Below are positions 1 to 35,744 of a DNA stretch of 64,000 nt, in pieces. The DNA comes from a virus. The translations under genes and the position numbers were made by a program. The notes below the pieces were generated by a model that was not told the DNA's origin, made no database searches, and saw nothing but the letters and a program-made list of their open reading frames with translations. The DNA lies in IMG/VR virus record IMGVR_UViG_3300033145_000788, positions 34,977-98,976 of that record; one strand, given 5' to 3'. Each line of letters opens with the position of its first letter. Positions within the stretch are counted from its first letter, which is position 1.

Positions 1-2
1 GG

Positions 3-281
3 GAGATATATGATCGTGAGAAAGAGAGCCGTTCTGTCTCCGAAAAAATTACCTGGAGTAGAAATACAGAAGGCAAACTGATTGAATGTGTTTGGAAGGA
101 TACTATGCCGAGTCACCGTCATGGCCATGCGCTCAGGATGGTCATAAAGCACTTCCTTGCGGACTATTGGTTTGTGGGGCGGATGCTCCAGGGTTTGCCC
201 ACGAATCCGAGTTATGCCGAGGCGATTTTGGGGAAAGAACATCGGACGATTAGTCCCCGTGAGAGGGGGTGGAAGTTTTAG
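3..281 (+). CDS. C-terminal end of an unidentified protein (partial)
   Basis: The reading frame is open from the window edge to TAG at 279-281, giving about 92 residues ending in ERGWKF. The start lies upstream of the window. The segment is rich in His, Arg and aromatic residues (for example SHRHGHALRM) and has no motif I recognise. It sits directly upstream of the first 36-nt-period array and may belong to the upstream replication module. No function is assigned. Confidence 0.6.
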   Translation, partial: EIYDREKESRSVSEKITWSRNTEGKLIECVWKDTMPSHRHGHALRMVIKHFLADYWFVGRMLQGLPTNPSYAEAILGKEHRTISPRERGWKF

Positions 282-303
282 AATGAAAAAGTTAAGATGG
301 AGA

Positions 304-650
304 AGAAACCCATCCCACTGAAGCGAGCTAACGAACCAAAGAAACCCACTGATTATAAGCGAGCCAAGGTGATAAAGAAACCCAGTTAGCGGAAGCGAGC
401 TACGGTTAGCAAGAAAGCCATACAAGAAAAGCGAGTTAAATTATATAAGAAATTCGGTAATGAAAAGCAAGCCATTTCTGGGAAGGAATCCATTATCGGC
501 AAGCGAGCCAAAAAAAATAAGAAACCCACATCGAGGAAGTGAGCTACAAAAAAAAAGAAAACCATTGATTAGAAGCGAGCTATGGCCCAAAAGAAAACCA
601 GTCTACAAAAGCGAGCCATAGACCTCAAGAAACCCAAGGTCAAGAAGCGA
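304..650 (+). repeat. TIGR-type array 1 (36-nt period, diverged words)
   Basis: Two 9-nt words alternate, AGAAACCCA-type and AGCGAGCTA-type, each followed by a variable 9-nt spacer, giving an exact 36-nt period. AGAAACCCA-type words begin at 304, 340, 376, 412, 448, 484, 520, 556, 592 and 628. AGCGAGCTA-type words begin 18 nt after each; the last, at 646, is only five bases. Words drift in the middle (AGAAATTCG at 448, AGCAAGCCA at 466), while spacing is kept without an indel. The layout matches arrays of tandem interspaced guide RNAs. No tas-like gene is adjacent; the nearest is at 4236 and its own arrays use different words. The array lies on the strand of the genes; transcription direction is inferred. 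Confidence 0.8.
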
Positions 651-668
651 ATTTTTCTTAAGAAAAAG

Positions 669-697
669 TTTAAAAATAAAGCGTCTTATTATATAAT
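669..697 (+). promoter_or_regulatory. Sigma70-like promoter P1
   Basis: TTTAAA at 669-674 is followed after 17 nt by TATAAT at 692-697. The 20-mer GTCTTATTATATAATATAGG around the -10 box is repeated exactly at the promoter before 22653. A Shine-Dalgarno AAGGAG at 706-711 and the GTG at 718 follow, so the leader would be very short. It would drive the recombination operon and lies just after array 1. Confidence 0.7.
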
Positions 698-717
698 ATA
701 GGTATAAGGAGAGAATT

Positions 718-1272
718 GTGGCAAAGAATTTGGATTATTCAGAGGAGATCAAGGTTGATCGTTACAATCTTGAGGTATTGTTAGAAGGCCAAGCTGAATT
801 ATATGGTAAGTATGCAAAGGCCTGGGCTGAGGCCGTGGCCGAGAGGGAAAAATTGGCTCGAAGGATCAAGATAGAGAAAGACAAGTTAAAAGAAATAGAA
901 GCAGAGTTAGATGCTATGGTGCGGGTGGATTGGGAAGAATATGGGTTCAAGAAGGCGCCAACTGAATCGGCAATTAGGAGTTGGATTATATTGCAATCAG
1001 AATATAAGATTCAGCAGAAAGAGATTTACCGGCTTGATTTGGAGAAGATAGAATGCTTTCGGATTGAGAATCGGCTTGACGGGGCCAAATACGCTTTTGA
1101 TCATCGAAAGTCTTCCCTTGAAGGTTTGACCAAATTGATGCTCGGCGGGTACTATTCCAAACCCCACGTCCCGCAGGAGATGAAGGATGAATCCGAGGGC
1201 CTGAAGCGGGAGGGTGAGGAAAAGAAAATCAGGGAGTCTGTTAAACGAAGAAAATTAAAGAGGGATAAATAG
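718..1272 (+). CDS. UvsY-like recombination mediator (putative)
   Basis: This 184-residue, highly charged, mostly helical protein starts at GTG after AAGGAG. Its N-terminus (EEIKVDRYNLEVLLEGQAEL) followed by a long Ala/Glu/Lys coiled coil resembles the UvsY-like mediators that many phages encode beside gp32-like and UvsX-like proteins; the C-terminal tail is strongly basic. UvsY-type proteins help load the recombinase on SSB-coated single-stranded DNA. The order here (mediator, SSB, RecA-like) supports that role. The assignment is by sequence pattern and neighbourhood, not by a decisive motif. Confidence 0.55.
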   Translation: MAKNLDYSEEIKVDRYNLEVLLEGQAELYGKYAKAWAEAVAEREKLARRIKIEKDKLKEIEAELDAMVRVDWEEYGFKKAPTESAIRSWIILQSEYKIQQKEIYRLDLEKIECFRIENRLDGAKYAFDHRKSSLEGLTKLMLGGYYSKPHVPQEMKDESEGLKREGEEKKIRESVKRRKLKRDK

Positions 1273-1273
1273 A

Positions 1274-1420
1274 ATGGAATGGTGGAAGATAGTCTTGGGT
1301 GTTCCGGTCTTATTATTCCTGATTGCATACCTGATTCATGTCATAGTCGGGAGTGCGGCGGACGCCTATTTCAAGGCAAAACTAAAATACCATGAGAGGA
1401 GAAAAGAGAATGAAACGTGA
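1274..1420 (+). CDS. Small single-pass membrane protein
   Basis: ATG 1274 to TGA 1418-1420 encodes 48 residues: a short N-terminus (MEWWK), a hydrophobic segment of about 22 residues, then a charged tail (KYHERRKENET). The topology suggests one membrane span. It begins two bases after the preceding stop and overlaps the start of the SSB gene, so it is likely co-translated. Function unknown. Confidence 0.5.
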   Translation: MEWWKIVLGVPVLLFLIAYLIHVIVGSAADAYFKAKLKYHERRKENET

Positions 1421-2540
1421 TCGAGAGAAAGACAGGGAACAACTGAGGGAACGGGAGAATCAGAGCCGGGAGACGAAGGACGACGGTGTGTTCGGGTTCT
1501 CGTCTTATTTCACAGTGCCAGAGGGAGTGGATATATGGTATCCAAAGTATCCCAGCAAGGTCAATGATTCTGAGCAATTTCAATTTGACATTGTCCCCTT
1601 TGTGGCCGGTGATAATTATCCGACTCGGATTGGCAAGGGTCCGTCCAATGTCAAGGCTGGCCACATGGTGTATGTGCTTGATGTGTGGATACACAAGAAC
1701 GTCGGACCGGAGAATCTTCAGACGGTCTGTCCGTTGAAGACTTATGGTTTGCGTTGCCCGATTTGTGAGCATGGCCAGGATTTGCTCGCTGATGAGGATG
1801 ACAAGGGAGAAAGAAAAAAAATAGTCAAGGAGAAATTCCCTAAGCGTCGGGTCATGTACAATGTGATTGTCCGGGATGGTGGTGAGGAGGAAGACAAGGG
1901 GATTCAGGTTTTTGAATTCAGTCATTATTGGATGGAGAAGGAGCTTCAAAATTTAAAGGATCTTCCAGATAATCGAAACGTCTTTTACGCCGACCCTATT
2001 GACGGAAGAACGATTTGGTTTAAGTTGACGAAAACGGGGACGGATAAGATGGAAAATGGGCCGTACACCTTTATTGAACGGGATTATGAGATAACCGAGG
2101 AGGAGCTGGACGAGGCGGTTTGCTTGGATGAATTATTGATTCCGCATTCCTATGATGAGATTCGTGATCTGTATTGGGGCGTTGATGCTGAGGAGGAAGC
2201 TGTTGAGGAAGAGAATGAGAATGTAGATGAACCCGGTAACTCCGAGCCCCCGTCCCGGCTGATCCGGAAACGGGATATGGAGGAACCGGTGGAGGAAGAG
2301 GAAGAAGAATCAGAGGAATCAGAGGAACCGGAAGGTGGGTGCCCCATCAATCTGAGGTGGGGCTATGACCATAACGAGTACGAGAACTGCGATACCTGCG
2401 ATAAGTATGACGACTGTGGGGCCGAGAAGGAGAGGATTAAGAAGGCTGAGCAGGCCAAGAAGAGGAAGAAAGCCGAAGCCGCCAAACCGATTCGCAAACC
2501 CAAACCGAGGGCGAGGGGATTCAAGAGGGGTGAGAAATGA
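1410..2540 (+). CDS. gp32-like single-stranded DNA-binding protein
   Basis: Protein of 376 residues from ATG 1410, preferred over ATG 1392 because AGGAGA sits about 9 nt upstream. It has a basic N-terminus, a central domain with a Cys pattern (VCPLKTYGLRCPICEHG) like the zinc-binding module of T4 gp32, a very acidic segment of Glu runs (about residues 265-310), and a second CxxC cluster with a basic tail. gp32-type proteins coat ssDNA during replication and recombination, usually using an acidic C-terminal region for partner proteins. Location between a UvsY-like and a RecA-like gene supports the call. The extra Cys-rich basic C-terminus after the acidic region is unusual. Confidence 0.75.
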   Translation: MKRDREKDREQLRERENQSRETKDDGVFGFSSYFTVPEGVDIWYPKYPSKVNDSEQFQFDIVPFVAGDNYPTRIGKGPSNVKAGHMVYVLDVWIHKNVGPENLQTVCPLKTYGLRCPICEHGQDLLADEDDKGERKKIVKEKFPKRRVMYNVIVRDGGEEEDKGIQVFEFSHYWMEKELQNLKDLPDNRNVFYADPIDGRTIWFKLTKTGTDKMENGPYTFIERDYEITEEELDEAVCLDELLIPHSYDEIRDLYWGVDAEEEAVEEENENVDEPGNSEPPSRLIRKRDMEEPVEEEEEESEESEEPEGGCPINLRWGYDHNEYENCDTCDKYDDCGAEKERIKKAEQAKKRKKAEAAKPIRKPKPRARGFKRGEK

Positions 2541-2749
2541 TGAGATATGTTATTAAAGGCCAAGAAGATGAGGAAGTGATGGAGTTTTCGTTGGAAAAAG
2601 GGGACGACGGAGAAATTTTCCTAGCGGCTAATGGATATTATCTTTTAGATATACATCCCGAAAGAGGGATTGGTCTTATTGAGAGCGTCCCGGAATCATT
2701 AGGTCTTGATGTAGATGAAGAAGGAAAAATTAAAGTAGTAAACAACTAA
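2537..2749 (+). CDS. Hypothetical acidic small protein
   Basis: 70 residues, start overlapping the SSB stop (ATGATG at 2537), so translation is probably coupled. Composition is acidic with no Cys and no membrane segment. About 140 bases before the next gene contain an AGGAGGAG stretch near 2791 followed by a possible 30-40 codon TTG/GTG frame that I did not call. No family recognised. Confidence 0.5.
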   Translation: MMRYVIKGQEDEEVMEFSLEKGDDGEIFLAANGYYLLDIHPERGIGLIESVPESLGLDVDEEGKIKVVNN

Positions 2750-2888
2750 CCATCTTGCGCCGGCGGGGTGGCGTCAACCATCCTTGTTCAGAGGAGGAGT
2801 TGCTTATTGTGTTACTGTTAGCGTTAATTCACCGTACGGAAAAGGGTTCGTTGGGAGCCCTTCCCGTCGGCGCATATAAGGATATTGA

Positions 2889-3926
2889 ATGTCTGAGAAA
2901 TTCAAGAGAGTAGCCAAACAGGTTGAGGAGGAAGTGGTGAGCCCGGTTGAATCCGACGGGATCGAGGTCCGGTGGGACCGGGGCGTCGTCAGCACAGGCT
3001 CAACCCTGCTCGATTTGGCGATCTCCGGTGGCCGGGTCCGAGGAGGCGGTATACCGGGAGGGCTTATCGTTGAGATATTCGGACCGTCCGGGTTCGGGAA
3101 GACGGCGTTGTTGATGGAGATATGTAGTAGTGCCCAGGCAAGGGGCGGTGATATCTTTGTCGCTGACCCGGAGGCCCGGCTTGATAAGGAATATTCCAGA
3201 ATTTATGGCGTACATATAAATCAGGATAAATATTCACGGCCAAATACTGTTACGGAAATGTTTGAACATATTAAAGAATGGAAGCCCGAACGAAAGAAAG
3301 AAAGGACAGTTTGCGTGTATGGCGGCGATAGTCTAGCTGCTTTGTCAACACAGATGGAGCTGGAGGATTCTGATCAGTATGGGATGCGGCGTGCAAAGGA
3401 ATTCAGCGAATCTATGAGAAAGGTTTGTCGTTTGATAGCCAATGAAAACTGGTTGCTAGTCCTGACGAACCAGGAACGGGAGGGGCCGAGCGGTGTGTCC
3501 ACCCCCGGTGGCCGGGCGATAGGGTACTATTCGTCTTTGCGGATTCGGGTTGCTAGTGGTTATCCCTCGTGGAAGATTAAAAAGAAAGTTAAAGTTGAGG
3601 GCAAGGATGTTGAGCAGATTGTCGGGATTAAATCCCAATGTACGATTAAAAAAAGTAGTGTTGATAACCCTTATCGGGAGGCGGATGTATCAATTATTTT
3701 TCAATACGGAATTGATGATCTCCGGGGAAATCTACAATATTGTAAGGACATGACTGGGGGGACTAAATATGCTTGTCAGGACAAGGAATATCAAGGGATT
3801 GATAAGGCGATAGGGTATATTGAAAGCAATGGACAGGCGGAATGGTTGAGGGAACGAACAATTAGTTTATGGGAAGAAGTTCAGGAACGGTTTAAGATTC
3901 AGAGGATGGAGAAGGTGAGGAAGTGA
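2889..3926 (+). CDS. RecA/UvsX-like recombinase
   Basis: 345 residues with Walker A GPSGFGKT at about residues 65-72, a Walker B-like strand VCVYGGDSLAAL, and a RecA-like L1/L2 region containing STPGGRAIGYYSS (compare the RecA TPGG pattern). The protein should form filaments on ssDNA and catalyse homologous pairing and strand exchange. AAGGA lies about 7 nt before ATG 2889. The stop codon TGA (3924-3926) is also the first three bases of the first word of repeat array 2, so the gene and the array abut directly. Confidence 0.85.
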   Translation: MSEKFKRVAKQVEEEVVSPVESDGIEVRWDRGVVSTGSTLLDLAISGGRVRGGGIPGGLIVEIFGPSGFGKTALLMEICSSAQARGGDIFVADPEARLDKEYSRIYGVHINQDKYSRPNTVTEMFEHIKEWKPERKKERTVCVYGGDSLAALSTQMELEDSDQYGMRRAKEFSESMRKVCRLIANENWLLVLTNQEREGPSGVSTPGGRAIGYYSSLRIRVASGYPSWKIKKKVKVEGKDVEQIVGIKSQCTIKKSSVDNPYREADVSIIFQYGIDDLRGNLQYCKDMTGGTKYACQDKEYQGIDKAIGYIESNGQAEWLRERTISLWEEVQERFKIQRMEKVRK

Positions 3927-4095
3927 TAGCTAGGTACTGTTTGAAATCTAATCTCCACTTGCGAGCTACGGTCGGAGTGAAATCTATTCCGGCATTGCGA
4001 GCTATAAACTTTTTGAAATCTATAAGGAACCTGCGAGCTATAAACTTTTTGAAATCTATTAAATGGTTGCGCACTACAATTCTCATTGAAGCCTA
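3924..4095 (+). repeat. TIGR-type array 2 (upstream of tasR)
   Basis: TGAAATCTA at 3942, 3978, 4014 and 4050 alternates with TGCGAGCTA at 3960, 3996, 4032 and a variant at 4068, with 9-nt spacers between all words (36-nt period). Degenerate words end the array: TGATAGCTA at 3924, overlapping the recA stop, and TGAAGCCTA at 4087. Spacers after TGAAATCTA are ATCTCCACT, TTCCGGCAT, TAAGGAACC and TTAAATGGT. Spacers after the other word include CGGTCGGAG and two identical copies of TAAACTTTT. Repeat words are far too short for CRISPR. From 4096 to 4235 I see no convincing gene. Confidence 0.88.
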
Positions 4096-4235
4096 ATAAG
4101 AGATTGTGTTCAGGAAGGAGATGATCAAGGCAAAAAGAATCAAAGAAGCGGCAAGGGGCACGGGATGATCTACCGAGAGACCTTATGATTATCCCCTTGG
4201 TAATAACAATTAATCATAGATAGGAGCGAGAAACT

Positions 4236-5369
4236 ATGAAAGAAGAAAAAAAGTTCCACCGTCCACAGCGCCATAAGCTGTTTGTGGATTACGCCAACGA
4301 AAAGGAAGTTGTGTATCTCGAACTTGAAAATGATGAGATATACCGATGCACCCCGATAGGATTTAAAAAAGTGGCCCTTGCTTCGAGGGAGATTTATTCC
4401 GAACCTATACCCATGAACCGGGCGAAGCCTCTGCTTGAAAAGGGAGTGAAGTTTTATCGATGCCGGACTACGGCCACCTCTGAACTCAGGGATAAACTTG
4501 GCCTGGAGAAGTCGGATGAGAATGACGCTTTGGTCATTCGGGAATTATATAAACGTGATCCGGGGAACTTTCGGGAATGGACGGGGGAATCCCGGTTAGG
4601 TGCTCTCTATGCGATTTATAAACAAACACAAAAAGAGAAAGTTGCCGTTGGAAACAGGGACTACGCCCTCGGCGGTGACGAGATTATCTCCGACATCAAG
4701 AAGCGGCAGGATTCCATCTTGACCGTGATAGAGAAAAAGATGAAGGAAGAACTGGATAAATACGTGGTCACCCCTTGGCTTCTCTCCATTAAGGGGTTGT
4801 CCGTGGTTACGGCGGCGGGGATAGTTTTCTGGACCGAGAAAATTGGGATAGAGAACTTTGGTAATCCGAGTAAATTAAAAAAATACTTCGGTTTGCACGT
4901 CAAGGATGGCAAGTCGGTCCGGGGCGGCGATGTTTATGGAACAGATCAGAAATTAGATTTCCCTGTTATGGCGAGAGCCCTTATGATAGGGGTCGTCGCT
5001 GACCTGTTCGTGAAGCAGCGGTCACCGGTTTACCGGAAGATATACGACCGTCATAAAGCGGAACAAACTGAGCGGGTCTTTGAGCCAGGCTTCCTAATGA
5101 AAGAGTTCAATGGCCGGGGTCCCCGGGTCAAGGGTCGGGCCAACCGATACGGGCCGGAGGACACCCGACTCGGGGCGGCCCACGCCAATAATCGGGCGAT
5201 GAGAAAGATGATGCAAATATTCCTGATTCATCTGTGGGTGATCTGGCGTCAGTTGCTCGGACTCCCGACCCCGTTGGGATATGCCGAGAACCATTTGAAA
5301 CATCGGTTTCCGCCCCTTCCGCCGAACGTGCCGAAGGAGCTTGAACCATTTGAGTGGGTGAAGGAATAG
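4236..5369 (+). CDS. tasR: TasR-type RNA-guided nuclease (IS110/Nop superfamily)
   Basis: 377 residues. The N-terminal ~115 residues look like an IS110-type RuvC fold: Asp18 in LFVDYA on the first strand and a KSDENDALVIREL motif (Asp94, Asp97) matching the IS110 KxDxxDA helix. Residues ~120-350 are helical and resemble the IS110 C-terminal/Nop region (SIKGLSVVTAAGIVFW, KLKKYFGLHV, HANNRAMRKMMQ). Tas proteins combine a Nop-like RNA-binding domain with a nuclease (RuvC in TasR) and use dual 9-nt guides from TIGR arrays; arrays with exactly this geometry flank the gene on both sides. No IS ends or target duplication were seen, and the IS110 catalytic serine motif is not evident. An IS110 transposase with unusual flanks is the main alternative. 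TAGGAG lies before the ATG. Confidence 0.82.
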   Translation: MKEEKKFHRPQRHKLFVDYANEKEVVYLELENDEIYRCTPIGFKKVALASREIYSEPIPMNRAKPLLEKGVKFYRCRTTATSELRDKLGLEKSDENDALVIRELYKRDPGNFREWTGESRLGALYAIYKQTQKEKVAVGNRDYALGGDEIISDIKKRQDSILTVIEKKMKEELDKYVVTPWLLSIKGLSVVTAAGIVFWTEKIGIENFGNPSKLKKYFGLHVKDGKSVRGGDVYGTDQKLDFPVMARALMIGVVADLFVKQRSPVYRKIYDRHKAEQTERVFEPGFLMKEFNGRGPRVKGRANRYGPEDTRLGAAHANNRAMRKMMQIFLIHLWVIWRQLLGLPTPLGYAENHLKHRFPPLPPNVPKELEPFEWVKE

Positions 5370-5404
5370 TATGACTGGGAGGGGGATTATGGCTAATTTA
5401 AAGT

Positions 5405-5749
5405 TGAAATCTATCCCCGGCCTGCGAATTGGTGATGATTCCCCGCTCCTTAAAAAGGCTAGAGAAGGGCTGAAATCTAAGCCAGCCCTGCGAGCTAGTC
5501 GGGTTCTGAAATCTAGAAGTTGATTGCGAGCCATGGACATCCTGAAATCTACTCTTATTTTGCGAGCTACAGCCTTTTTGAAATCTAGAAATTGATTGCG
5601 AGCTATAAAACCAATGAAATCTAGGACCCCTTTGCAAGCTACTGAACGGCTGAAATCTATCAATCCGGTGCGAGCTAGCTGTCCATTGAAATCTATTTCT
5701 GCACTGCGAGCTACAGGGCAATTGAAATCTAAATGTCTTTTGTGAAAGA
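5405..5749 (+). repeat. TIGR-type array 3 (downstream of tasR)
   Basis: TGAAATCTA words at 5405, 5471, 5507, 5543, 5579, 5615, 5651, 5687 and 5723 alternate with TGCGAGCTA words at 5489, 5525 (CCA ending), 5561, 5597, 5633 (TGCAAGCTA), 5669 and 5705; spacers are always 9 nt from 5471 onward. Between 5405 and 5471 the period is broken by 6 bases and words are degenerate (TGCGAATTG at 5423), so the upstream end looks decayed. Two spacers, GAAGTTGAT (5516) and GAAATTGAT (5588), differ by one base. A weak final word (TGTGAAAGA, 5741) runs into the exonuclease gene. The same words as array 2 imply a shared effector. Confidence 0.88.
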
Positions 5750-5756
5750 AAAAACT

Positions 5757-6611
5757 ATGAAAAATCTACTTGTTGACAGTAATTATCTTTGTTACAGATC
5801 AAAATTCCGCATGCCGGATTTATCTCACGACGAGAAGCTGACTTCAATAATTTTCGGCTTCTTGTCTCAAGTTTTCGAGCTGGCGAACCGGTTCAATACT
5901 AACCGATTTGTATTTGCCTGGGATTCCGGGAAAAGTCTACGAAGAAGCCTTTACCCGGAGTATAAGGCGAAGAGGCATGCGGATAAAACAGATGAGGAAA
6001 GGGAGAAGGACAGAATCGCATACGCACAGTTCGACGAACTCAGAAAAGAGGTCTTGCCGGCCCTCGGATTTAAGAATGTCTTTTACCAAGATGGATATGA
6101 ATCCGATGACTTGATTGCTTGGCTAGTGATGGAAAATGAGGAGGATTTTACTGTTATTTCGTCGGATAATGATCTTTGGCAGGTTCTTGATTACTGTGAC
6201 ATGTATGATCCGAGAACCAAGGAGATGACCACTAGGCAGACCTTTATGGAGCAATGGCAGATTGAACCGGTTGTCTGGCTTGCCGTCAAGGCCGTCGCCG
6301 GTTGCCCGACAGACAATATTGCCGGAGTACCCGGTGTCGGCGAGAAGACGGCAATCAAATTTCTAAAGGAACAATTGAAATATGAAAGCAAAGTCCGCCG
6401 GAGAATCGTAAGTGCGGAGTGTCAGCAAATAATTGAGAGGAATCGCAAGCTGGTTAAGTTGCCGATGGATGGGGTAGAGCCCATGACCTTGAGGAAGGAT
6501 GAGTTTACCAGGAAAGCCTTTATGGATATGTGTCACCGATATGATTTCCGTTCCTTTCTCTTGGGGAGTAGATTGGGTCAATGGTTAGATCAATTTTGCG
6601 AAGGAGAATGA
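5757..6611 (+). CDS. 5'-3' exonuclease / flap endonuclease-like
   Basis: About 284 residues from ATG 5757 (MKNLLVDSNYLCYR), preferred over ATG 5733, which lies inside the last array spacer. Motifs of the FEN/T5 exonuclease family are visible: LVDSN near the N-terminus, FVFAWDSG, the SLYPEYKAKR arch-region motif, YESDDLIAWL with metal-binding acids, VISSDNDLWQVL, and the helix-hairpin-helix GVPGVGEKTA. It would remove flaps or RNA primers and process recombination ends. It follows directly on array 3, so it may share a transcript with the array. Confidence 0.85.
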   Translation: MKNLLVDSNYLCYRSKFRMPDLSHDEKLTSIIFGFLSQVFELANRFNTNRFVFAWDSGKSLRRSLYPEYKAKRHADKTDEEREKDRIAYAQFDELRKEVLPALGFKNVFYQDGYESDDLIAWLVMENEEDFTVISSDNDLWQVLDYCDMYDPRTKEMTTRQTFMEQWQIEPVVWLAVKAVAGCPTDNIAGVPGVGEKTAIKFLKEQLKYESKVRRRIVSAECQQIIERNRKLVKLPMDGVEPMTLRKDEFTRKAFMDMCHRYDFRSFLLGSRLGQWLDQFCEGE

Positions 6612-6612
6612 A

Positions 6613-6939
6613 ATGAAAGAGACAAAAATAGAAACAAGAATCGTGGAATTTTCTGAGGAGATCGTCAATAGTCTACCAATAAATAAGATAGACGATGAAT
6701 TATTGCCTTTGATTTTGGCGATGAATCAGGCGGGAATTAAGACCCGAAGTTGTTGTTCTGGTCATACTATAAATAAGGCCTCGGTTACCATTGATATAGA
6801 GAGTCTTGATTCTTTCTTTGTTCACGATGATTCTCTCACTCTTTATTTTAAATGCCCTATTGCAAAGGTGGAGCCGGGTTATGAAGATAAGATTAAATAT
6901 CCGCCAGCGGGAAGGGGAATTCAATGGAGTTGGACATAG
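6613..6939 (+). CDS. Hypothetical protein with Cys-Cys-Ser-Gly-His motif
   Basis: 108 residues, starting one base after the exonuclease stop. A GIKTRSCCSGHT motif follows a predicted helix, resembling the short S-C-S/x-G-H signature seen in several small phage proteins; the rest is strand-rich and not diagnostic. Likely cytoplasmic. Function unknown. Confidence 0.55.
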   Translation: MKETKIETRIVEFSEEIVNSLPINKIDDELLPLILAMNQAGIKTRSCCSGHTINKASVTIDIESLDSFFVHDDSLTLYFKCPIAKVEPGYEDKIKYPPAGRGIQWSWT

Positions 6940-6948
6940 GAGCCTAAA

Positions 6949-7830
6949 ATGAAAACAGGAGCGGAGTGTTTAGAGTGGCTTAGGGGGAAGTATGGGAATG
7001 AATTTGCTAAGGATCTCCAGGCCCTGATAGGTCACCCCGACCCCGGTTGGACATTTCCCCGATTTCAAGTAAAGTGGGGTACGTCTCCCCGGCAGAGGTT
7101 TTTCCGGATATTTGGCCAGGAGGCTTATGGAATGGCTTGTTACCGAAAAAACGGCCAGAGGAGCGGGGAAGCCTATCGAGCCCTCCTTAAAAAGAGAAAG
7201 GGGCCTGAATTTATCACAGACATGGACGCCTTGCTCGAACGGCCTTATTGGACTTTGACCGGATTCGGGGAGAAGTGGGGTTTGTCAAAGGAGCGGGCTC
7301 GCCAGATATTCCTCAAGTTGCACGGCAAGCCCTATGGCGATGTGATATCCCTGAAGAAGAAAAGGGTTGAGGAGGATTTAAAGGAACTTCCTTGTCAAAA
7401 CGATCCCAGGGTTAAGATGGCGGAATGGGACAAATCCAATCTGCTTTACGGTTCGGCTTATGCCCAGATGCTCGTTTTTGACAAATGCAAGGAACTGGGG
7501 TTTGACGTCCAGGTTCCTTGTTCCGGTATGAATCGATTGGTAATTAACGGATATATGGTGATTCCGAAGCAGTGTTCGGAACGGCATCTTTTTTCTCCGG
7601 TCGGTGGGTTGAAATATTATCGCATCCATGCCACCGTGAACCAGATCAAGGAGTGTGATTTTATGATTGCTTATGTCGAACCTTGGGATTGCTTTTATGT
7701 TTTTCCTAAGAAGGAATTTCAGAGAGTTGGGGTCTATCTGAGGGAGGAGGACGTAAATACCTATTGTACTTCCCGTGGCCATAATTATCAGGCGTACCGG
7801 GAAGCCTGGGGACAATTGAGGAGGGAATAA
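6949..7830 (+). CDS. HTH-repeat protein with degenerate nuclease-like C-terminus
   Basis: 293 residues. The first ~130 contain two sigma-region-4-like units (FQVKWGTSPRQRFFRIFGQ and FGEKWGLSKERARQIFLKLH), suggesting DNA binding. The C-terminal ~130 residues follow the layout of PD-(D/E)XK_11-type nucleases (FDKCKELGFDVQVPCSG, YYRIHATV, ECDFMIAYV, CFYVFPKKEF), but the usual acidic/lysine active-site residues are not obvious, so it may be inactive. Role unknown; the position in the recombination block is suggestive. Confidence 0.5.
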   Translation: MKTGAECLEWLRGKYGNEFAKDLQALIGHPDPGWTFPRFQVKWGTSPRQRFFRIFGQEAYGMACYRKNGQRSGEAYRALLKKRKGPEFITDMDALLERPYWTLTGFGEKWGLSKERARQIFLKLHGKPYGDVISLKKKRVEEDLKELPCQNDPRVKMAEWDKSNLLYGSAYAQMLVFDKCKELGFDVQVPCSGMNRLVINGYMVIPKQCSERHLFSPVGGLKYYRIHATVNQIKECDFMIAYVEPWDCFYVFPKKEFQRVGVYLREEDVNTYCTSRGHNYQAYREAWGQLRRE

Positions 7831-8900: not shown

Positions 8901-10015
8901 TGCTCAAGTCTGTTAAAATAACAAATTTCCAAAAGCAGAGAGATCTTGAACTGGAACTCGTCCCCGGCGTCAACGTGCTGGCCGGGAGGAGTGATCTCGG
9001 TAAGTCGGCGGTCGTCAGGGCCGTAGGATGGGCCCTGAGGAACAGGCCACAGGGATTCGGATTCCGATACGATCCGGAGATAGCCAGGGACGGGGGGAAG
9101 AAGCTCAAAAAGGATGATCTGACATCGGTTAATCTCTCCTTTGACAATGGGGAAATCTCTCGACAAAGGAATGAAAAATCAATCAACTCCTATATCGTGA
9201 ACGGCGAGATGCTCGAAGCCCTCCGAGGCGATGTTCCAGAGGAGGTGTCTGGCCTGATAAATATAGAGTCGTGCTGCTTCCAGGACCAGCACGATCCATA
9301 TTTCCTTCTCCAGGATACTCCGGGGGAGGTGGCCCGGAAGCTGAATGAGGTTTCCGGTCTTGACCTGATAAGCCGGGTGATTAAGACCATTAATTCTATG
9401 GCTGCTAAAGCGGAAGCCGAAGCCGCCATGGCAAGGAAGACGGCCGGCGAGAAAGACGGCCGGATACAGGAGCTTGTTTTCCTGGATAAGGTAATTCCTT
9501 TGGCCGAAAAGATACAGGCGGCTCTCGATGAGAGGGATAAATTATCTGCCCAGGAAAAAGAATTGAATGAGATTATAGGGTCACTTGAGGAGATTGACTC
9601 AGACTTGGCTGAAACAAGTGGCTGGCTGGGGATAGAAGAGCCTTTTTTAAGAGTTTGGGCCGGATTGGATAGGTTATATAGGGCTAAGGAAGAACTCTCG
9701 GATTTGGACGATCTAATCACCAGGGCGACCGATGTGGAGGAGTCCCTGGAGAACGAGCGGGCTTGGCTGGCAATAGAGGATGCCGCTAACAAGGTGGCCG
9801 GGATACTGGAAAGGAAGAAAGGGGTTGAGAGAGAATGGGGAGAGCTAGAATCCGTGATACGCAGGTTTGATGATAATGAAGATATGCTGGAGCCGAAGAG
9901 GTTTGAGTTGGAGGGATTGCGGCGGGCCTATGCCGCCCTTTTATTGGAGGCCGGAATCTGCCCTTGGTGCGGGAGTGAGGTTGAAAGGGCGGGATTGGAG
10001 GAACATGTGTTATGA
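8900..10015 (+). CDS. SbcC/Rad50-like ATPase, N-terminal half (ends at zinc hook)
   Basis: 371 residues. It begins with the SMC-family N-terminus (MLKSVKITNFQ), Walker A GRSDLGKS at about 29-36 and a Q-loop region (CCFQDQHDPYFLL). A coiled coil follows from about 160 to 345. It ends shortly after CPWCG (about 354-358), which matches the CxxC zinc hook at the tip of Rad50/SbcC coiled coils. The signature motif and Walker B are absent here but present in the gene at 12209-12796. With the SbcD-like nuclease at 10125 it should form a nuclease complex for DNA ends. Confidence 0.75.
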   Translation: MLKSVKITNFQKQRDLELELVPGVNVLAGRSDLGKSAVVRAVGWALRNRPQGFGFRYDPEIARDGGKKLKKDDLTSVNLSFDNGEISRQRNEKSINSYIVNGEMLEALRGDVPEEVSGLINIESCCFQDQHDPYFLLQDTPGEVARKLNEVSGLDLISRVIKTINSMAAKAEAEAAMARKTAGEKDGRIQELVFLDKVIPLAEKIQAALDERDKLSAQEKELNEIIGSLEEIDSDLAETSGWLGIEEPFLRVWAGLDRLYRAKEELSDLDDLITRATDVEESLENERAWLAIEDAANKVAGILERKKGVEREWGELESVIRRFDDNEDMLEPKRFELEGLRRAYAALLLEAGICPWCGSEVERAGLEEHVL

Positions 10016-10128
10016 TGGGAACTGAGCTTATAGATTATTTCTATTGGCAGGGTGCTGGATTTGGAGCCGCTGTTATATTAGTGATTATCATAGCATTTGA
10101 TCTTATAGAATTATTGAGGGATAAATGA
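10012..10128 (+). CDS. Tiny single-pass membrane protein
   Basis: 38 residues from ATG 10012, overlapping the upstream stop (ATGA) and ending in TGA that overlaps the next ATG. One hydrophobic span of about 20 residues (GAAVILVIIIAFDLIELL) is followed by a charged end. Overlaps at both ends argue for real translation. Function unknown. Confidence 0.5.
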   Translation: MMGTELIDYFYWQGAGFGAAVILVIIIAFDLIELLRDK

Positions 10129-11036
10129 AAATCCTCGCCATGCCAGATCTCCATGCCAGGGAGACCGCTCCGAGATGCCGGACGGATGATTATCTTGCGG
10201 CGCTTATGGGGAAGCTGGATTGGGCCGGTAAGTTATCTCAGGACGAGGCGGTTGATGTGGTGGTCTTCCCCGGAGATATATTCGATTCCTGTCGGGCAAG
10301 CGATAACCTGAAAAGGTTGATGATTGATTGCTTTCATTATTCTTTTGACGATGTTATCGGGGTGGCCGGTCAGCATGACCAGAGATATCATACGAAAGAC
10401 TTGAATAATACGCCTCTTGGCGTTTTGCAGGCAGCGGGGGCGATGGCGGTAATCGGAGAATCTGGATTGGAACGGTGGGTGAGAGAGGGTTGCCGGTTTT
10501 ATGGAACCTCCTGGGGGGAGGATATCCCTGAAATAAAATCGGAGGGATTTAACATTCTTGTTATTCATAAGATGATAATCAAAGGATTAAGGGTCTGGCC
10601 GGGACAGACCGATTATTCATTTGCCAAGCGGTTGCTTGAGAAGCATGATTATGACCTGATCATATCGGGAGACAATCACCAGTTTTTCATGGAGGAGTAT
10701 GAGGGCAGATGGTTGATAAATTGCGGCTCTCTGATGAGGCAATCAATAAATCAAGTGAAGTACCATCCGGCCGTGGTGATATTTGATACTGAGATTCGGC
10801 AACCGGAAACATATGAAATCCCGGTCAAGCCGATAGAGGAGGTAATGAAATTGGAAGAAGTAGAGGACGAGAAGGAGAGAAATGAAAAGTTAGAGGAGTT
10901 TGTGTCATCGCTGGGGTCTGATGGCGAGCATATCGAATTGGATTTTTTGAGCAACCTGAAAGCTACCATCCGGAATTCCGGTCTTGGCATTGATGTTGAG
11001 GACGTGATCTGGGAGGCGGTGGGAAAGGAGGAATGA
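10125..11036 (+). CDS. SbcD/Mre11-like metallophosphatase nuclease
   Basis: 303 residues with calcineurin-type phosphoesterase motifs: MPDLHARE near the start (D, H), FPGDIFDSC, GQHDQR (variant of GNHD), VIHKMI and SGDNHQFF, plus NCGSLMRQ near the end of the catalytic domain. The last ~70 residues are acidic and helical and could be the ATPase-binding or capping segment. Partner of the split SbcC-like ATPase; the complex would process double-strand ends. Confidence 0.8.
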   Translation: MKILAMPDLHARETAPRCRTDDYLAALMGKLDWAGKLSQDEAVDVVVFPGDIFDSCRASDNLKRLMIDCFHYSFDDVIGVAGQHDQRYHTKDLNNTPLGVLQAAGAMAVIGESGLERWVREGCRFYGTSWGEDIPEIKSEGFNILVIHKMIIKGLRVWPGQTDYSFAKRLLEKHDYDLIISGDNHQFFMEEYEGRWLINCGSLMRQSINQVKYHPAVVIFDTEIRQPETYEIPVKPIEEVMKLEEVEDEKERNEKLEEFVSSLGSDGEHIELDFLSNLKATIRNSGLGIDVEDVIWEAVGKEE

Positions 11037-13397: not shown

Positions 13398-13673
13398 ATG
13401 ATTTATCTTGATGCCCAAAGGGCGGCGGAAAGATTTGCCCCGATTTTTGAAAAGATGGGGTGGACGTGGAGGGGGAAAGATGGGAATCATTATGTTCCTC
13501 TTGAAGCACAAATTTGTCAACGATTAATCCAGTTGAGAAGTGATATTATTTCTGATGATTGTCTAATGAGTGGTACTGGGAGATTAGAAGCTGTTAAAAT
13601 GGATAAGGAACGAATTTGTTTTAGATTAGACCCTGGAAGCGAGAGTGAGTGGGATAAACAATATGCCGGATAA
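13398..13673 (+). CDS. Hypothetical protein
   Basis: 91 residues following AAAGGAG. Begins MIYLDAQRAAERFAPIFEKM, a helix, with a central aromatic segment (WTWRGKDGNHYVP). No recognised domain. It overlaps the next gene by a few codons. Confidence 0.45.
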   Translation: MIYLDAQRAAERFAPIFEKMGWTWRGKDGNHYVPLEAQICQRLIQLRSDIISDDCLMSGTGRLEAVKMDKERICFRLDPGSESEWDKQYAG

Positions 13674-14787
13674 CGACAAAATCACGGAATCGGTAATCAT
13701 CCATCTGATTGAGACCTATGGCAACTTGGCGAACCAGCAGAGGTTTAATCTGGCCAAGCATTGCGTAAGGACCGGCCAAATAAACAGGGGCCACAGTCAA
13801 CTTATGAAGGTTTTGGAAAACAATTCAAATCACGTTGAGGCCAGAAGGTTAATGGAGCTGATGCTCTTTGGGCCAGTGTGGCCGGTGCAGTTGTGCATCG
13901 AGCCGACAAACGAATGCCATGTCGGATGCCCTGGATGTGGGGGCCGGGACGGGGAGATCGGATACATGGACCTGGACCTCTTTAGGACTCTAATGTTGGA
14001 GGTCGCCCCGCATCTCCGGATTCTGGCCCTACATAATCGGGGTGAGTCGTTTCACCATCCTAAGATTTATGACTTCTTGGATGTAGTCGGACAATTCAAG
14101 CATATTTCAACATACATCCATACGGCCGGGCATCTTCCCTTGGATGCTGAGAGGATAGTCCGGGCTCAGGTGCCGACAGAGTTAGTGTTTAGCCTTGATG
14201 GGTTTACGGAGAAGACGCATAGGAAGTATAGAATCGGAGCCGACTTCCAAATTGCGATAGACAATATCAAGAGACTGAAGAAGGAGAAGCGTAAGCTGAA
14301 CGTTGATAAGCCGAAGATCGTCTGGAAATATATTATGATGGGAACGAATGAGCGTGAGGTTAGGCAGGCGATGGGGTTAGCAGCCGAACTCGGATGCGAT
14401 GAGTTCCGGATGGCCCCTTTTGCGGTTGGGTGGAAGACGATAGAGGGCAAGGTGGATGCCTATTTGAAGAAGTTTCTGCCTTCAGATGATAGGAATCTGA
14501 GGAATGACCGTGAGGCTTTGATGCAGGGAAAGATTGTAAAGGCGGGAAGGAAGCCGGGCGAGCCGTTTAATTGTATGGTGGTGCATAACTCGACCGCCAT
14601 CCGGTGGGACGGGAAGGTCTTGCCCTGTTGCAATTGCCTTGAGCCGTATCAGCAGGTCATGGGGGTGTACGGGCCGGGGATGAAGTTCAAGGATATCTGG
14701 GATAGTACCGGGTTCCGGTCGTTCCGGAAGGCGGCTGTCTTGGATGCCAGGAGGCTGAAACCTTGTAGCATGTGCCATATGATTTAA
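13663..14787 (+). CDS. Radical SAM protein (SPASM-like C-terminus)
   Basis: About 374 residues from ATG 13663 (a GTG at 13645 is possible). After ~75 helical residues comes CIEPTNECHVGCPGCGG, the CxxxCxxC motif binding the 4Fe-4S cluster that cleaves S-adenosylmethionine. The C-terminus has CCNC and CSMCHM after AIRWDGKVLP, as in SPASM/twitch auxiliary cluster domains. Next to a glycosyltransferase and two acyl/acetyltransferases, it may modify a sugar or peptide. The substrate cannot be told from sequence. Confidence 0.75.
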   Translation: MPDNDKITESVIIHLIETYGNLANQQRFNLAKHCVRTGQINRGHSQLMKVLENNSNHVEARRLMELMLFGPVWPVQLCIEPTNECHVGCPGCGGRDGEIGYMDLDLFRTLMLEVAPHLRILALHNRGESFHHPKIYDFLDVVGQFKHISTYIHTAGHLPLDAERIVRAQVPTELVFSLDGFTEKTHRKYRIGADFQIAIDNIKRLKKEKRKLNVDKPKIVWKYIMMGTNEREVRQAMGLAAELGCDEFRMAPFAVGWKTIEGKVDAYLKKFLPSDDRNLRNDREALMQGKIVKAGRKPGEPFNCMVVHNSTAIRWDGKVLPCCNCLEPYQQVMGVYGPGMKFKDIWDSTGFRSFRKAAVLDARRLKPCSMCHMI

Positions 14788-22380: not shown

Positions 22381-22587
22381 AGAAATAAACAATGCCTGAA
22401 GGAAGAAAGAGCGGTGGGGCCAAGAAGATAGGCCGGAACGGTCTGAAATAGGCTGGCCCTGGGGCGTGAACAGACTTATTTTTGGTTTAAGCCCTTAGCC
22501 TTATGCCTTTGTATAGGTTTAGACCCGGAATTGGTTTGGAAGGTGTTTTATCCCCCGGTAAAAGAAAAGCCGTTCCTTGAAAAAAAG

Positions 22588-22616
22588 TTTAAAAGCAGGC
22601 CGTCTTATTATATAAT
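22588..22616 (+). promoter_or_regulatory. Sigma70-like promoter P2 (copy of P1)
   Basis: TTTAAA at 22588-22593, 17-nt spacer, TATAAT at 22611-22616. From AAAAAGTTTAAAA through GTCTTATTATATAATATAGG it is nearly identical to P1 at 669-697, differing only in a few spacer bases. Drives the gene run from 22653. Confidence 0.7.
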
Positions 22617-22652
22617 ATAGGTAAGGAAAGAATATTAGAAAGAGGAAGGGGA

Positions 22653-33773: not shown

Positions 33774-35744
33774 ATGAAAAGACTGACTGTTTTTCTGGTC
33801 GTCCTTGTGACGGCCTTTTTTATTGCCACGGCAACGGCCCGTGCCATCCGGTGGCGGGGATATGAGCCCCAAACCGTGATAAAAGTGTCCGGGGTGGGTG
33901 GGGACTATACAACCATCCAGGCTGCGTTGACTGCCAATGCGACTGAGAATATCGTGATCCAGGTTTATCCTGGGACCTATACCGATGACACAATTACCTT
34001 TACGGCCGACAATCAAACGATCCGGGGAATGGGGTTGACTGCAAATCAGATTGTGACCACGGCCGATGCGGCGATAGTGGATTACGGAGCCTATGCGAAT
34101 TGCAGGATTGAAAATATTAAGATTACAATGACTAATCCTACAACCGATAAGGTGATGATTACAGGAACGGGATTTCTCAAGTTGAGGTGGTGTCATTTAG
34201 GATTGGCGGCCTCGAATGTAAACGCCTCCGAGGCCCGGATATTTGGAGGGACGGGCGATGTCACAATGACGTTTGGAACGATTGACTATGATAACGATTC
34301 CGATGATGGCACCGCTTACAAGGCTCCTATTCTCCTTGAGTCGGGTTCTTCTTACTGTTTCAGGAAGGTTATCATTGATATAGACGGGACTAATGCATCG
34401 GCGGTGACCACTACTTTTTTTGGGGCTGGAACGGGGGTTTTCGATCTCTATCGTTGCGTTATGGACGTCGTTGATACCGGGGCCACCTTAACGGTGGGAT
34501 TTGGATATTTGACCGGGGAGGGAACTTCTGAGACGTATGGAAATACGATCCATGTCACGGGTGCGGCTACTGAGACTGCTTATGGGGGATATCTGGCCTC
34601 CGGTACTTCCATGGTCTTTCGTTCAATGTATAATCATATTCATGTTTTGGCGGCTGGAGGGACGGCCAATAGTTGGGTCATTGGAGCCAATTGTACTGTG
34701 GTTAGCCAGTTCGATGATATCATTGCCGCAGACGGAGCGAGCGTTACCGGGACTTATACATATCTTAATTCTCCTTCTGATGGGCAATTGGGAACGTCGA
34801 GTACAACGGTCGTGACTAATTTGAATGCCGATTTGCTTGACGGAGAATCCGCTACGGCCTTTCAGGATGCCAATGCAAATTTAACCACCTATGCAGGAAT
34901 CGCTCCTACTGCCGATGTTCAAACATTTCTCGCCAATGCTGCTGACTTTGAAATAGACGCCGATGGCAATATAACTGGAAAAAGCTGGACGAGTGCAAAG
35001 CAGAACGGTGTTCCTGGATATTCAGGGGTTTATGGTGCCGAGGGTGCAGAGACTTGGCAGACATTTTGGGAAGGTGCAGCGAACCTTGCCAACCATGTCT
35101 ATTTAAAGCATCCAAATACAGGTCCACAGGCAGCAAATCAAATCATGTTATTTCCTACTGAAGATGGCAACCATCGTTCAACATATGCCTGGATGACAGC
35201 CTTTGGATGGAAGGCAATCTCTGTTGATCCATCCGCCTTTGTCTGCGATGGCACAAACTGCACCGATCCTGAAAAAACTCAAATCAATGGGGGGCCCACC
35301 ACCTGGATGGTTTGTTGTGCTGATGCCGCTGGAGTTTTTGAGTTTAAGATTCCTCAAATGCCCGATAATTGGGACGGCGGCGATATACATATAATGCTCG
35401 ATGTTTACTCTGCTGAGGGTACGCCTGCAGGAACGATTTCGTTTTTGGTTGAACTACAGGCACGTGGGCATGGTGTTATAATTGACAATACTTGGGTTAC
35501 TTTAAATGGAGCTATTTACTTTGAAGACGCTGAAACAGCAGGCACAACTGTTGATATACAATATGGTCTGTTTCAATCTGAGAACATAACTGCAATGGCG
35601 GCAGCAGGAGCGGGAAGGGATGTATTATTTGTCCGCAATACTCGTGATTACGATGATGCTACTCATGACACATCAACTCAAGAAATTCGCATTTTGGGTG
35701 CAACAGTCTTTTACAAGATTGATGAACTTGAGGAGAGAGATTAA
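33774..35744 (+). CDS. Exported beta-helix/fibre-like protein (chimeric)
   Basis: 656 residues. A Sec-type signal peptide (MKRLTVFLVVLVTAFFIATA, TARA) is followed by a pectate-lyase-like start (VSGVGGDYTTIQAALTANAT, VYPGTYTDDTITF) and beta-helix repeats to about residue 330. From about base 34980 the codon choice shifts to A/T-ending and less CGG/CCG, and the protein becomes a beta-sandwich-like region. It therefore looks like a phage beta-helix fused to a later-acquired C-terminal part. Could be a head fibre or an exported surface protein. Confidence 0.5.
   Translation: MKRLTVFLVVLVTAFFIATATARAIRWRGYEPQTVIKVSGVGGDYTTIQAALTANATENIVIQVYPGTYTDDTITFTADNQTIRGMGLTANQIVTTADAAIVDYGAYANCRIENIKITMTNPTTDKVMITGTGFLKLRWCHLGLAASNVNASEARIFGGTGDVTMTFGTIDYDNDSDDGTAYKAPILLESGSSYCFRKVIIDIDGTNASAVTTTFFGAGTGVFDLYRCVMDVVDTGATLTVGFGYLTGEGTSETYGNTIHVTGAATETAYGGYLASGTSMVFRSMYNHIHVLAAGGTANSWVIGANCTVVSQFDDIIAADGASVTGTYTYLNSPSDGQLGTSSTTVVTNLNADLLDGESATAFQDANANLTTYAGIAPTADVQTFLANAADFEIDADGNITGKSWTSAKQNGVPGYSGVYGAEGAETWQTFWEGAANLANHVYLKHPNTGPQAANQIMLFPTEDGNHRSTYAWMTAFGWKAISVDPSAFVCDGTNCTDPEKTQINGGPTTWMVCCADAAGVFEFKIPQMPDNWDGGDIHIMLDVYSAEGTPAGTISFLVELQARGHGVIIDNTWVTLNGAIYFEDAETAGTTVDIQYGLFQSENITAMAAAGAGRDVLFVRNTRDYDDATHDTSTQEIRILGATVFYKIDELEERD

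What the first reader, a model, noticed from the sequence alone, without database searches (positions are those of the whole stretch)
3924..5749. TIGR-Tas locus: RuvC/Nop-type effector flanked by two 36-nt-period guide arrays
Seen directly: a protein with an IS110-like RuvC region and Nop-like helical region (4236-5369) lies between arrays (3924-4095, 5405-5749) in which two different 9-nt words, TGAAATCTA and TGCGAGCTA, alternate with variable 9-nt spacers. Known: TIGR-Tas systems (Faure and colleagues, 2025, as I recall) use 36-nt tigRNAs with two 9-nt spacers and Tas proteins with a Nop domain, TasR carrying RuvC. The match in period, spacer length and protein type is specific. New here: arrays on both sides of the gene, inside a phage recA-exonuclease operon.
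Basis: partly seen in the sequence, partly recalled or inferred. Interest (0 to 1): 0.95.

Follow-up and report, generated by a model that had tools for sequence, protein, structure and literature searches.

The report
Phage with two RNA-guided nuclease systems
The sequence is a genuine TIGR-TasR locus, a recently described kind of RNA-guided DNA cutter, and the same phage also carries a second one (TasH) a few kilobases away; what these guides aim at is still unknown.

Summary
Observation confirmed; interpretation largely right. Window 3924-4108 and 5387-5749 hold dual-repeat arrays with a 36-nt period: loop TGAAATCTA (13 of 14 units), edge TGCGAGCTA, 9-nt spacers. They flank an intact 377-aa ORF (4236-5369) whose closest solved chain is TIGR-TasR (9mty, 119 bits, 37% identity; also top fold hit). 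IS110 matches are weak. Of 51 IMG/VR records with a Tas match here, one other has two Tas genes, apparently duplicate TasA copies. The guides do not match their own phage beyond chance; a hint of matches in other phage contigs did not replicate in independent DNA. In relatives with TasH-like repeats, near-duplicate spacers are 7-fold enriched within loci, pointing to unit duplication plus drift. Verdict: new member of a known kind; natural targets unknown.

The parts
3924..4108 (+). TasR upstream TIGR array: truncated edge, 4 clean units and 1 degenerate unit, truncated edge
4236..5369 (+). tasR, 377 aa: N-terminal RuvC-type nuclease (candidate acidic residues D18, E56, D94, D97) and C-terminal Nop domain
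   Evidence: NCBIfam NF052498 93.1 bits, just under its cut-off of 100; PDB 9mty 119.4 bits, E 1.9e-33; Foldseek top hit 9mty E 2.1e-13, TM 0.44/0.56; alignments
5387..5427 (+). solitary TIGR unit, truncated edge on both sides (spacers ATTTAAAGT / TCCCCGGCC)
5453..5749 (+). TasR downstream TIGR array, 8 units, ends in truncated edge TGTGA
1..281 (+). 3' end of tasH (whole gene at G000 34304-35257, 317 aa); HNH plus Nop by homology to solved TasH
   Evidence: PDB TasH 21kl 306.1 bits, E 2.8e-90; Salicola phage CGphi29 48.1% identity over 100%; Pfam-A gave no family at E 0.001
289..651 (+). TasH downstream TIGR array, 10 units, loop AAGAAACCCA and variants, edge AAGCGAGCYA and variants, 8-nt spacers (the 4-unit upstream array is outside the window at G000 ~34107-34250)
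655..705 (+). 51-nt promoter-like element, 82% like the one that precedes the TasH upstream array (G000 34040-34090); possible start of the operon that contains tasR
   Evidence: consensus match only
2889..3926 (+). UvsX/RecA-like recombinase directly upstream of the TasR array; its stop codon overlaps the truncated edge
   Evidence: phrog_97 E 6.5e-46
5757..6611 (+). 5'-3' exonuclease directly downstream of the TasR array (an ATG at 5733 inside the last spacer is an alternative start)
   Evidence: PF02739 E 3.3e-24; phrog_107 E 2.7e-35

Best explanation
This is a TIGR-TasR system in a tailed-phage genome that also encodes a TIGR-TasH system. Most likely the TasR arrays are transcribed as part of the recombination operon (uvsX - array - tasR - array - exonuclease) and cut inside the edge repeats (TGCGAGCTA) into 36-nt tigRNAs with spacer A, the loop TGAAATCTA and spacer B. 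A TasR dimer holds one tigRNA on its Nop domains. The two 9-nt spacers pair with opposite strands of an 18-bp site, and the two RuvC domains cut both strands. TasH does the same with 8+8-nt guides and an HNH nuclease. Shown here: the genes, arrays, homology, fold match, the second system and the absence of self-targets above chance. Taken from Faure 2025 and inferred for this protein: processing, pairing and cleavage. Inferred without any test: the operon, and the use of the 28 guides (some degenerate) against competing mobile elements in the same host.
For: Array grammar beyond chance, with truncated end edges and an A-rich loop repeat as described for TasR. Best sequence match among solved structures is the 331-aa chain 9mty, titled TIGR-TasR; 37% identity with E56, D94, E95 and D97 kept. 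Fold hits at E below 0.001 are 21 chains, all TasR, TasH or IS110 recombinases, TasR first. NCBIfam TIGR_Tas_endo E 2.3e-26. The second system matches solved TasH at E 2.8e-90 and has 8-nt spacers, the length implied for SpTasH (16 nt for two spacers). The same repeat pair occurs beside TasA-like genes in two other contigs, L005 and L006. All 14 TasH relatives found have a 36-nt array beside tasH.
Against: The NF052498 score (93.1) is below the curated cut-off of 100, though so is that of the TasH (90.3). The first aspartate of the RuvC site (D18) was aligned only to a fragmentary homologue, not to 9mty, because the phmmer alignment starts at residue 53. The RuvC part of the model is mostly below pLDDT 50 and the superposition is loose (rmsd 9.9). 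No + strand terminator lies within 130 nt after either array, unlike the typical arrays in the paper. The repeats end in CTA, not the CCA of the paper. No target was found, so the biological role is not shown.
Confidence: 0.93

Rival explanations
1. An IS110-family transposon with a bridge RNA, the repeats being part of its non-coding end.
For: Weak Pfam Transposase_20 match (14.8 bits, cut-off 21.3), NCBIfam IS110 33.3 bits (cut-off 140), PHROG 'transposase' families as only PHROG hits, and IS621/ISCro4 in the fold list.
Against: TasR scores far higher in sequence and fold. Repeated 36-nt dual-repeat units on both sides are not a bridge RNA. No Rfam family reaches its gathering score in window 1-7000. 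Element ends were not searched for as such.
Confidence: 0.02
2. The repeats encode a repetitive peptide on the minus strand (36 = 12 codons; minus-strand ORFs of 64 to 189 aa run through the arrays).
For: Minus-strand ORFs cross the window arrays; with idealised repeats the 14 window units have 1 and 0 stops in 168 codons in two minus frames (shuffled spacers about 3).
Against: In 599 units with TasH-like repeats every frame has stops, at least 85 in 7,188 codons, although two minus frames are below the shuffled mean (85 v 118.8, 89 v 117.6). Repeats are conserved at all positions while spacers vary, and 14 of 14 TasH relatives have the arrays beside tasH.
Confidence: 0.02
3. A programmable homing or marker-exclusion device: TasR and TasH cut the corresponding replication/recombination region of co-infecting related phages, and repair from this phage's genome spreads the tas loci.
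For: Both systems sit in the replication/recombination module: tasH after a DnaE-like polymerase gene (my reading of the translation), tasR between uvsX and a 5'-3' exonuclease. The own genome is not matched above chance, as expected for an element that spares itself. Faure 2025 saw plasmid loss but no block of conjugation or phage.
Against: No target signal that replicated in 2.19 Mb of mostly Tas-bearing phage DNA for guides of the 8+8 type. No close relative of this phage was found to test it.
Confidence: 0.15
4. The TasR system is a decaying remnant, replaced by TasH.
For: The last unit of array 1 is degenerate and one unit stands apart from array 2; the TasH upstream array also has two degenerate units.
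Against: The tasR ORF is intact with acidic residues kept; 13 of 13 clean loops are identical, while TasH loops are exact in only 7 of 14 units.
Confidence: 0.07

Closest known systems
TIGR-TasR (TaTasR, Faure et al. 2025, PMC12045711; PDB 9mty)
   Same: Dual-repeat array, 36-nt unit, 9-nt spacers, A-rich loop repeat, repeats beginning UG, truncated end edges, Nop domain with RuvC; 37% protein identity over the aligned part.
   Different: Repeats end in CUA rather than CCA (CCA in one edge); 377 aa versus 331 aa, with residues about 286-315 absent from the 9mty chain; no terminator found near the array ends; shares its genome with TasH.
TIGR-TasH (SpTasH, Salicola phage CGphi29; PDB 21kl and others)
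   Same: The neighbouring system: protein 48% identical over its length, 8-nt spacers, 36-nt unit.
   Different: Arrays on both sides; shares its genome with TasR.
TasA-like loci L005 and L006 (IMG/VR)
   Same: Share the repeat pair TGAAATCTA / TGCGAGCYA with the window's TasR arrays.
   Different: ORFs of 283-290 aa with a Nop-type match, a CxxC-type (zinc-ribbon-like) insertion and no N-terminal nuclease that I could see.
IS110 recombinases (IS621, ISCro4)
   Same: Fold hits of the same model; shared Nop-like RNA-binding fold per Faure 2025.
   Different: Bridge RNA and recombination; no guide arrays (recalled and per Faure 2025).

Membership tests
TIGR-TasR | Array of two alternating 8-12-nt repeats with about 9-nt spacers beside the gene | tested here: met
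TIGR-TasR | Truncated edge repeat at both array ends | tested here: met
   TGATAGCTA, TTATGGCTA, AAAAGGCTA at 5' ends; TGTG, TGCGA, TGTGA at 3' ends
TIGR-TasR | Rho-independent terminator after the array ('typically') | tested here: not met
   no + strand hit within 130 nt after 4108 or 5749; the paper calls it typical, not obligatory, so I do not treat it as defining
TIGR-TasR | Nop domain of the Tas clade | tested here: met
   NF052498 93.1 bits, below its cut-off of 100; 9mty 119 bits; Foldseek top hit 9mty
TIGR-TasR | N-terminal RuvC with four acidic residues | tested here: inconclusive
   E56, D94, D97 align with 9mty; D18 only with a WOR-3 homologue; low model confidence there
TIGR-TasR | UG (box D) and CCA (box C) motifs shared by edge and loop | tested here: inconclusive
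   both repeats start TG and end in the same motif, but it is CTA in most and CCA in one edge; the paper says motifs can diverge if both repeats agree
TIGR-TasR | 36-nt tigRNAs and tandem-spacer cleavage of both DNA strands | not testable with these tools
   needs RNA sequencing and cleavage assays
TIGR-TasH (second system) | HNH-Nop protein with adjacent 36-nt array | tested here: met
   full-length match to solved TasH, arrays, relative in Salicola phage; no Pfam HNH hit at E 0.001
IS110 transposon | Curated IS110 family score | tested here: not met
   14.8 bits of 21.3, 33.3 of 140
IS110 transposon | Defined element ends and bridge RNA | not tested
   no search for element ends was made

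The most novel reading that the evidence does not exclude
The phage runs two different RNA-guided nucleases as one arsenal: TasH and TasR, with 28 guides of two lengths, placed in the replication and recombination module so that cuts in competing genomes are repaired from this phage's own DNA, a programmable, multi-guide form of homing or marker exclusion. Arrays diversify by duplicating units and letting spacers drift rather than by capturing DNA.
Probability: 0.12. Interest if true: 0.8.

Novelty: new member of a known kind. Interest (0 to 1): 0.5.

Why it matters
The natural targets and the way TIGR arrays grow are named as open questions by the discoverers. A probably complete phage record with two distinct Tas nucleases, guides of 8 and 9 nt and different repeats is a good natural comparison: the two systems can be tested for cross-loading, division of labour and shared targets. 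The excess of near-duplicate spacers in relatives gives a testable idea of how arrays grow without acquisition genes. The null result for targets in other Tas-bearing phage contigs narrows where to look.

Tried and rejected
Self-targets: 28 guides against the own genome, gaps 0-2 nt, two orders of the halves. Mean best mismatch, observed against re-paired guides: TasR 3.5 v 3.59 and 3.5 v 3.66; TasH 2.86 v 2.85 and 3.0 v 2.84.

Cross-targets (guides of the 8+8 type, taken by an automatic parser from loci with TasH-like repeats). A first small run, 144 guides on 0.69 Mb: expected order 1 exact, 11 one-mismatch; re-paired 0 and 6-16. Then 612 guides on 1.16 Mb: 6 exact and 109 one-mismatch against 1.3 and 67.7 (3 permutations), while the opposite order gave 0 and 90 against 2.7 and 76.7. 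After masking arrays and redundant DNA and a stricter guide list (599 guides, 1.05 Mb with the own genome included): 4 and 93 against 1.4-1.5 and 63-68 (1 of 100 permutations reached 93). In 1.14 Mb of independent DNA: 0 and 80 against 1.3 and 72.6, and the opposite, control order was the one in excess (89 against 69.5, 3 of 100 permutations). I therefore reject the signal. The 14 guides of the window's TasR arrays were tested only on the first 0.69 Mb (0 exact, 0 one-mismatch in either order). One of them was scanned exactly against all of IMG/VR: 5 stretches, two of them the same DNA of one sample, about what I would expect by chance (my estimate; no control scan run).

Relatives: TasR alone and aligned with 9mty found no relative in IMG/VR. 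The one genome-collection scan gave one split TasR-like gene in a WOR-3 MAG with no 36-nt array in the locus. The large terminase found one distant contig (45%); megablast of window 1-25000 against GenBank phages found nothing. A single-sequence structure model was useless (pLDDT 38.7).

Minus-strand coding and IS110 were considered and rejected as above. No Rfam match.
Full report
What was checked. Ten matches to TGAAATCTA-N9-TGCGAGCTA (up to one mismatch) stand against a mean of 0.00 in 100 shuffles. I count 14 units beside tasR: 5 upstream (the last degenerate) and 9 downstream (one solitary, then eight in a row). All 13 clean loops are TGAAATCTA. By the description in Faure et al. 2025 (PMC12045711; I read the outline and abstract, parts 1-3 of 12 of the text, the Discussion, the parB methods and the figure legends, and passages found by term), the A-rich repeat is the loop and the other, TGCGAGCTA, the edge that is cut. 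Both start with TG and end with CTA, where that paper's TasR consensus is CCA. Array ends carry truncated edges, as the paper describes. No + strand terminator lies within 130 nt after either array, which differs from the typical case and fits an array embedded in an operon (inference).

The protein. The 377-aa ORF matches the NCBIfam TIGR-Tas endonuclease model with 93.1 bits (cut-off 100) and IS110 models weakly; its only PHROG hits are called transposase. The best solved chain is 9mty with 119.4 bits, titled 'Structure of TIGR-TasR in complex with tigRNA and target DNA after DNA cleavage'; identity over the aligned part is 37%. A model from 17 sequences (mean pLDDT 65.4; about 80-89 in much of the Nop part, mostly under 50 in the first 66 residues) has 9mty as top fold hit (E 2.1e-13, TM 0.44/0.56, rmsd 9.9), followed by TasH and IS110 recombinases; all 21 hits with E below 0.001 are of these three kinds. 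E56, D94, E95 and D97 are shared with 9mty and D18 with a WOR-3 homologue; which of them form the catalytic four is my inference.

The second system. The window is bases 34,977-98,976 of a 98,976-base virus record with a 114-base direct terminal repeat, which suggests a complete genome. A search of that record with TasR found a second gene that begins before the window. It is a 317-aa TasH: 306 bits to the solved TasH, 48% identical to the protein of Salicola phage CGphi29; Pfam-A gives no family at E 0.001. It has 4 units upstream (two degenerate) and 10 downstream, 10+8+10+8 nt, with the loop exactly AAGAAACCCA in 7 of 14; the downstream array lies at window ~289-651. The two repeat pairs share a core (GCGAGCYA and GAAAYCYA; by eye).

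How unusual is that? A peptide search found 14 TasH relatives in IMG/VR. A repeat-pattern search gave 53 stretches in 47 records, 43 of them not seen before. With the TIGR_Tas_endo model, 17 of 18 IMG/VR records had a match at E 0.1 and 34 of 43 at E 0.01: 51 of 61, of which 37 (12 and 25) over the curated cut-off. The model also rang, below cut-off, in 3 of 14 control genomes. Two separate Tas genes occur in 2 of the 51: this phage and G028, where they look like near-identical TasA copies beside a ParB-like gene (read by eye). Several other records with two matches are pieces of one ORF. Many records are short contigs and some are near copies of each other, so these are not frequencies. In Faure 2025 the terms searched showed no heterotypic pair; parts 4-12 were not read in full and the supplement could not be. 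The paper searches (one search listed 20 of 918) showed no other primary paper, but the library lacks most subscription journals, and TasH structures released in 2026 imply further work. I therefore do not claim a first.

Arrays on both sides are ordinary: at least 6 of the 14 TasH relatives have them (two of the six are near copies) and the paper says so. The TasR repeat pair also occurs beside TasA-like genes in L005 and L006, so the repeats alone do not tell the effector class.

Targets. I took the expected site as A followed by the reverse complement of B with a gap of 0-2; this order is my inference from the 8-nt 3' overhang, and the paper's two statements on the cut position did not read the same to me, so I tested the opposite order too. 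In the own genome nothing exceeds re-paired guides. In other phage DNA a first excess shrank with cleaning and did not replicate. The window's own TasR guides were tested on 0.69 Mb with 0 exact and 0 one-mismatch hits in either order, and one guide on all of IMG/VR without a convincing target. So: no self-targeting seen, no target known.

Array growth. In 54 non-redundant loci with 586 units (found by similarity to the TasH repeat pair; automatic parsing), 37 of 5,004 within-locus unit pairs share spacer A or B to within one mismatch, against 175 of 166,401 between loci, a 7-fold excess, in 19 of 54 loci. Comparing A of one unit with B of another as a control for composition gives 7 of 10,008 within and 179 of 332,802 between, only 1.3-fold (same call). 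In 21 of the 37 pairs the other spacer also differs by 3 or fewer of 8. Pairs are not independent: two loci (L091, L082) give 14 of the 37. In the window, two TasR units share spacer A and two others differ by one base in spacer B. Two near-identical records (L012, L014) show the same arrays but for one spacer base. Simplest reading: units duplicate and spacers drift. Recombination between repeats and selection on spacers are not separated.

Mechanism. Known steps for this family (processing to 36 nt, dimer, opposite-strand pairing, double cut) are taken from Faure 2025. That this protein does the same is inferred from homology. A role in competition with other mobile elements is one of the roles that paper proposes and is untested here; homing or marker exclusion is the variant I find most interesting, because of the gene neighbours.

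Verdict. A real TIGR-TasR locus, new member of a known kind, made more interesting by the second, TasH system in the same genome.

Noticed in passing
L123 (Microcystis phage Mvi-JY20, PP438412.1) 3851-4576 and 4587-4904: A phage with a named host has a Tas-like gene annotated as hypothetical protein with an unannotated, slightly irregular array of about 36-nt units (ACGAAACCC / ATGCGAGCC) right after it; a possible experimental model.
   Followed up: partly
L082 1563-5280 (G028): Two near-identical TasA-like genes in tandem with partly diverged arrays and a ParB-like gene next to them (names by eye).
   Followed up: partly
L065 4977-5916: WOR-3 bacterium MAG with a TasR-like gene split in two overlapping ORFs; no 36-nt array found in the locus, but a 32-nt tandem repeat at 7762-7824.
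   Followed up: partly
window 59494-62655, residues about 232-370: Tape measure protein also matches thymidylate synthase, ribonucleotide reductase and PhoH PHROG profiles in one internal stretch, which suggests an intein; Pfam did not show one.
   Followed up: partly
window 40311-43508: Prohead protease domain and an AAA ATPase domain in one 1066-aa ORF.
   Followed up: partly
window 655-705 and 22579-22624; G000 34045-34090, and the -10-like half alone at G000 5125 and 15968: A recurrent promoter-like motif (TTTAAA ... TATATAATATAGGTA) at several places of the phage, two copies bracketing the TasH system.
   Followed up: partly
L004 9538-10152 (minus) inside 9049-10710: An HNH-endonuclease-looking ORF lies antisense inside a methyltransferase-like ORF, like a homing insertion (reading of the translations only).
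   Followed up: no
L004 10707-14039: DnaE-like polymerase that seems fused to a uracil-DNA-glycosylase-like C terminus (reading of the translation only).
   Followed up: no
window 49509-49981: 144-nt tandem repeat, 3.3 copies, 76% matches.
   Followed up: no
window 13645-14787: Gene with SPASM and (just under cut-off) Radical SAM domains in the phage.
   Followed up: no
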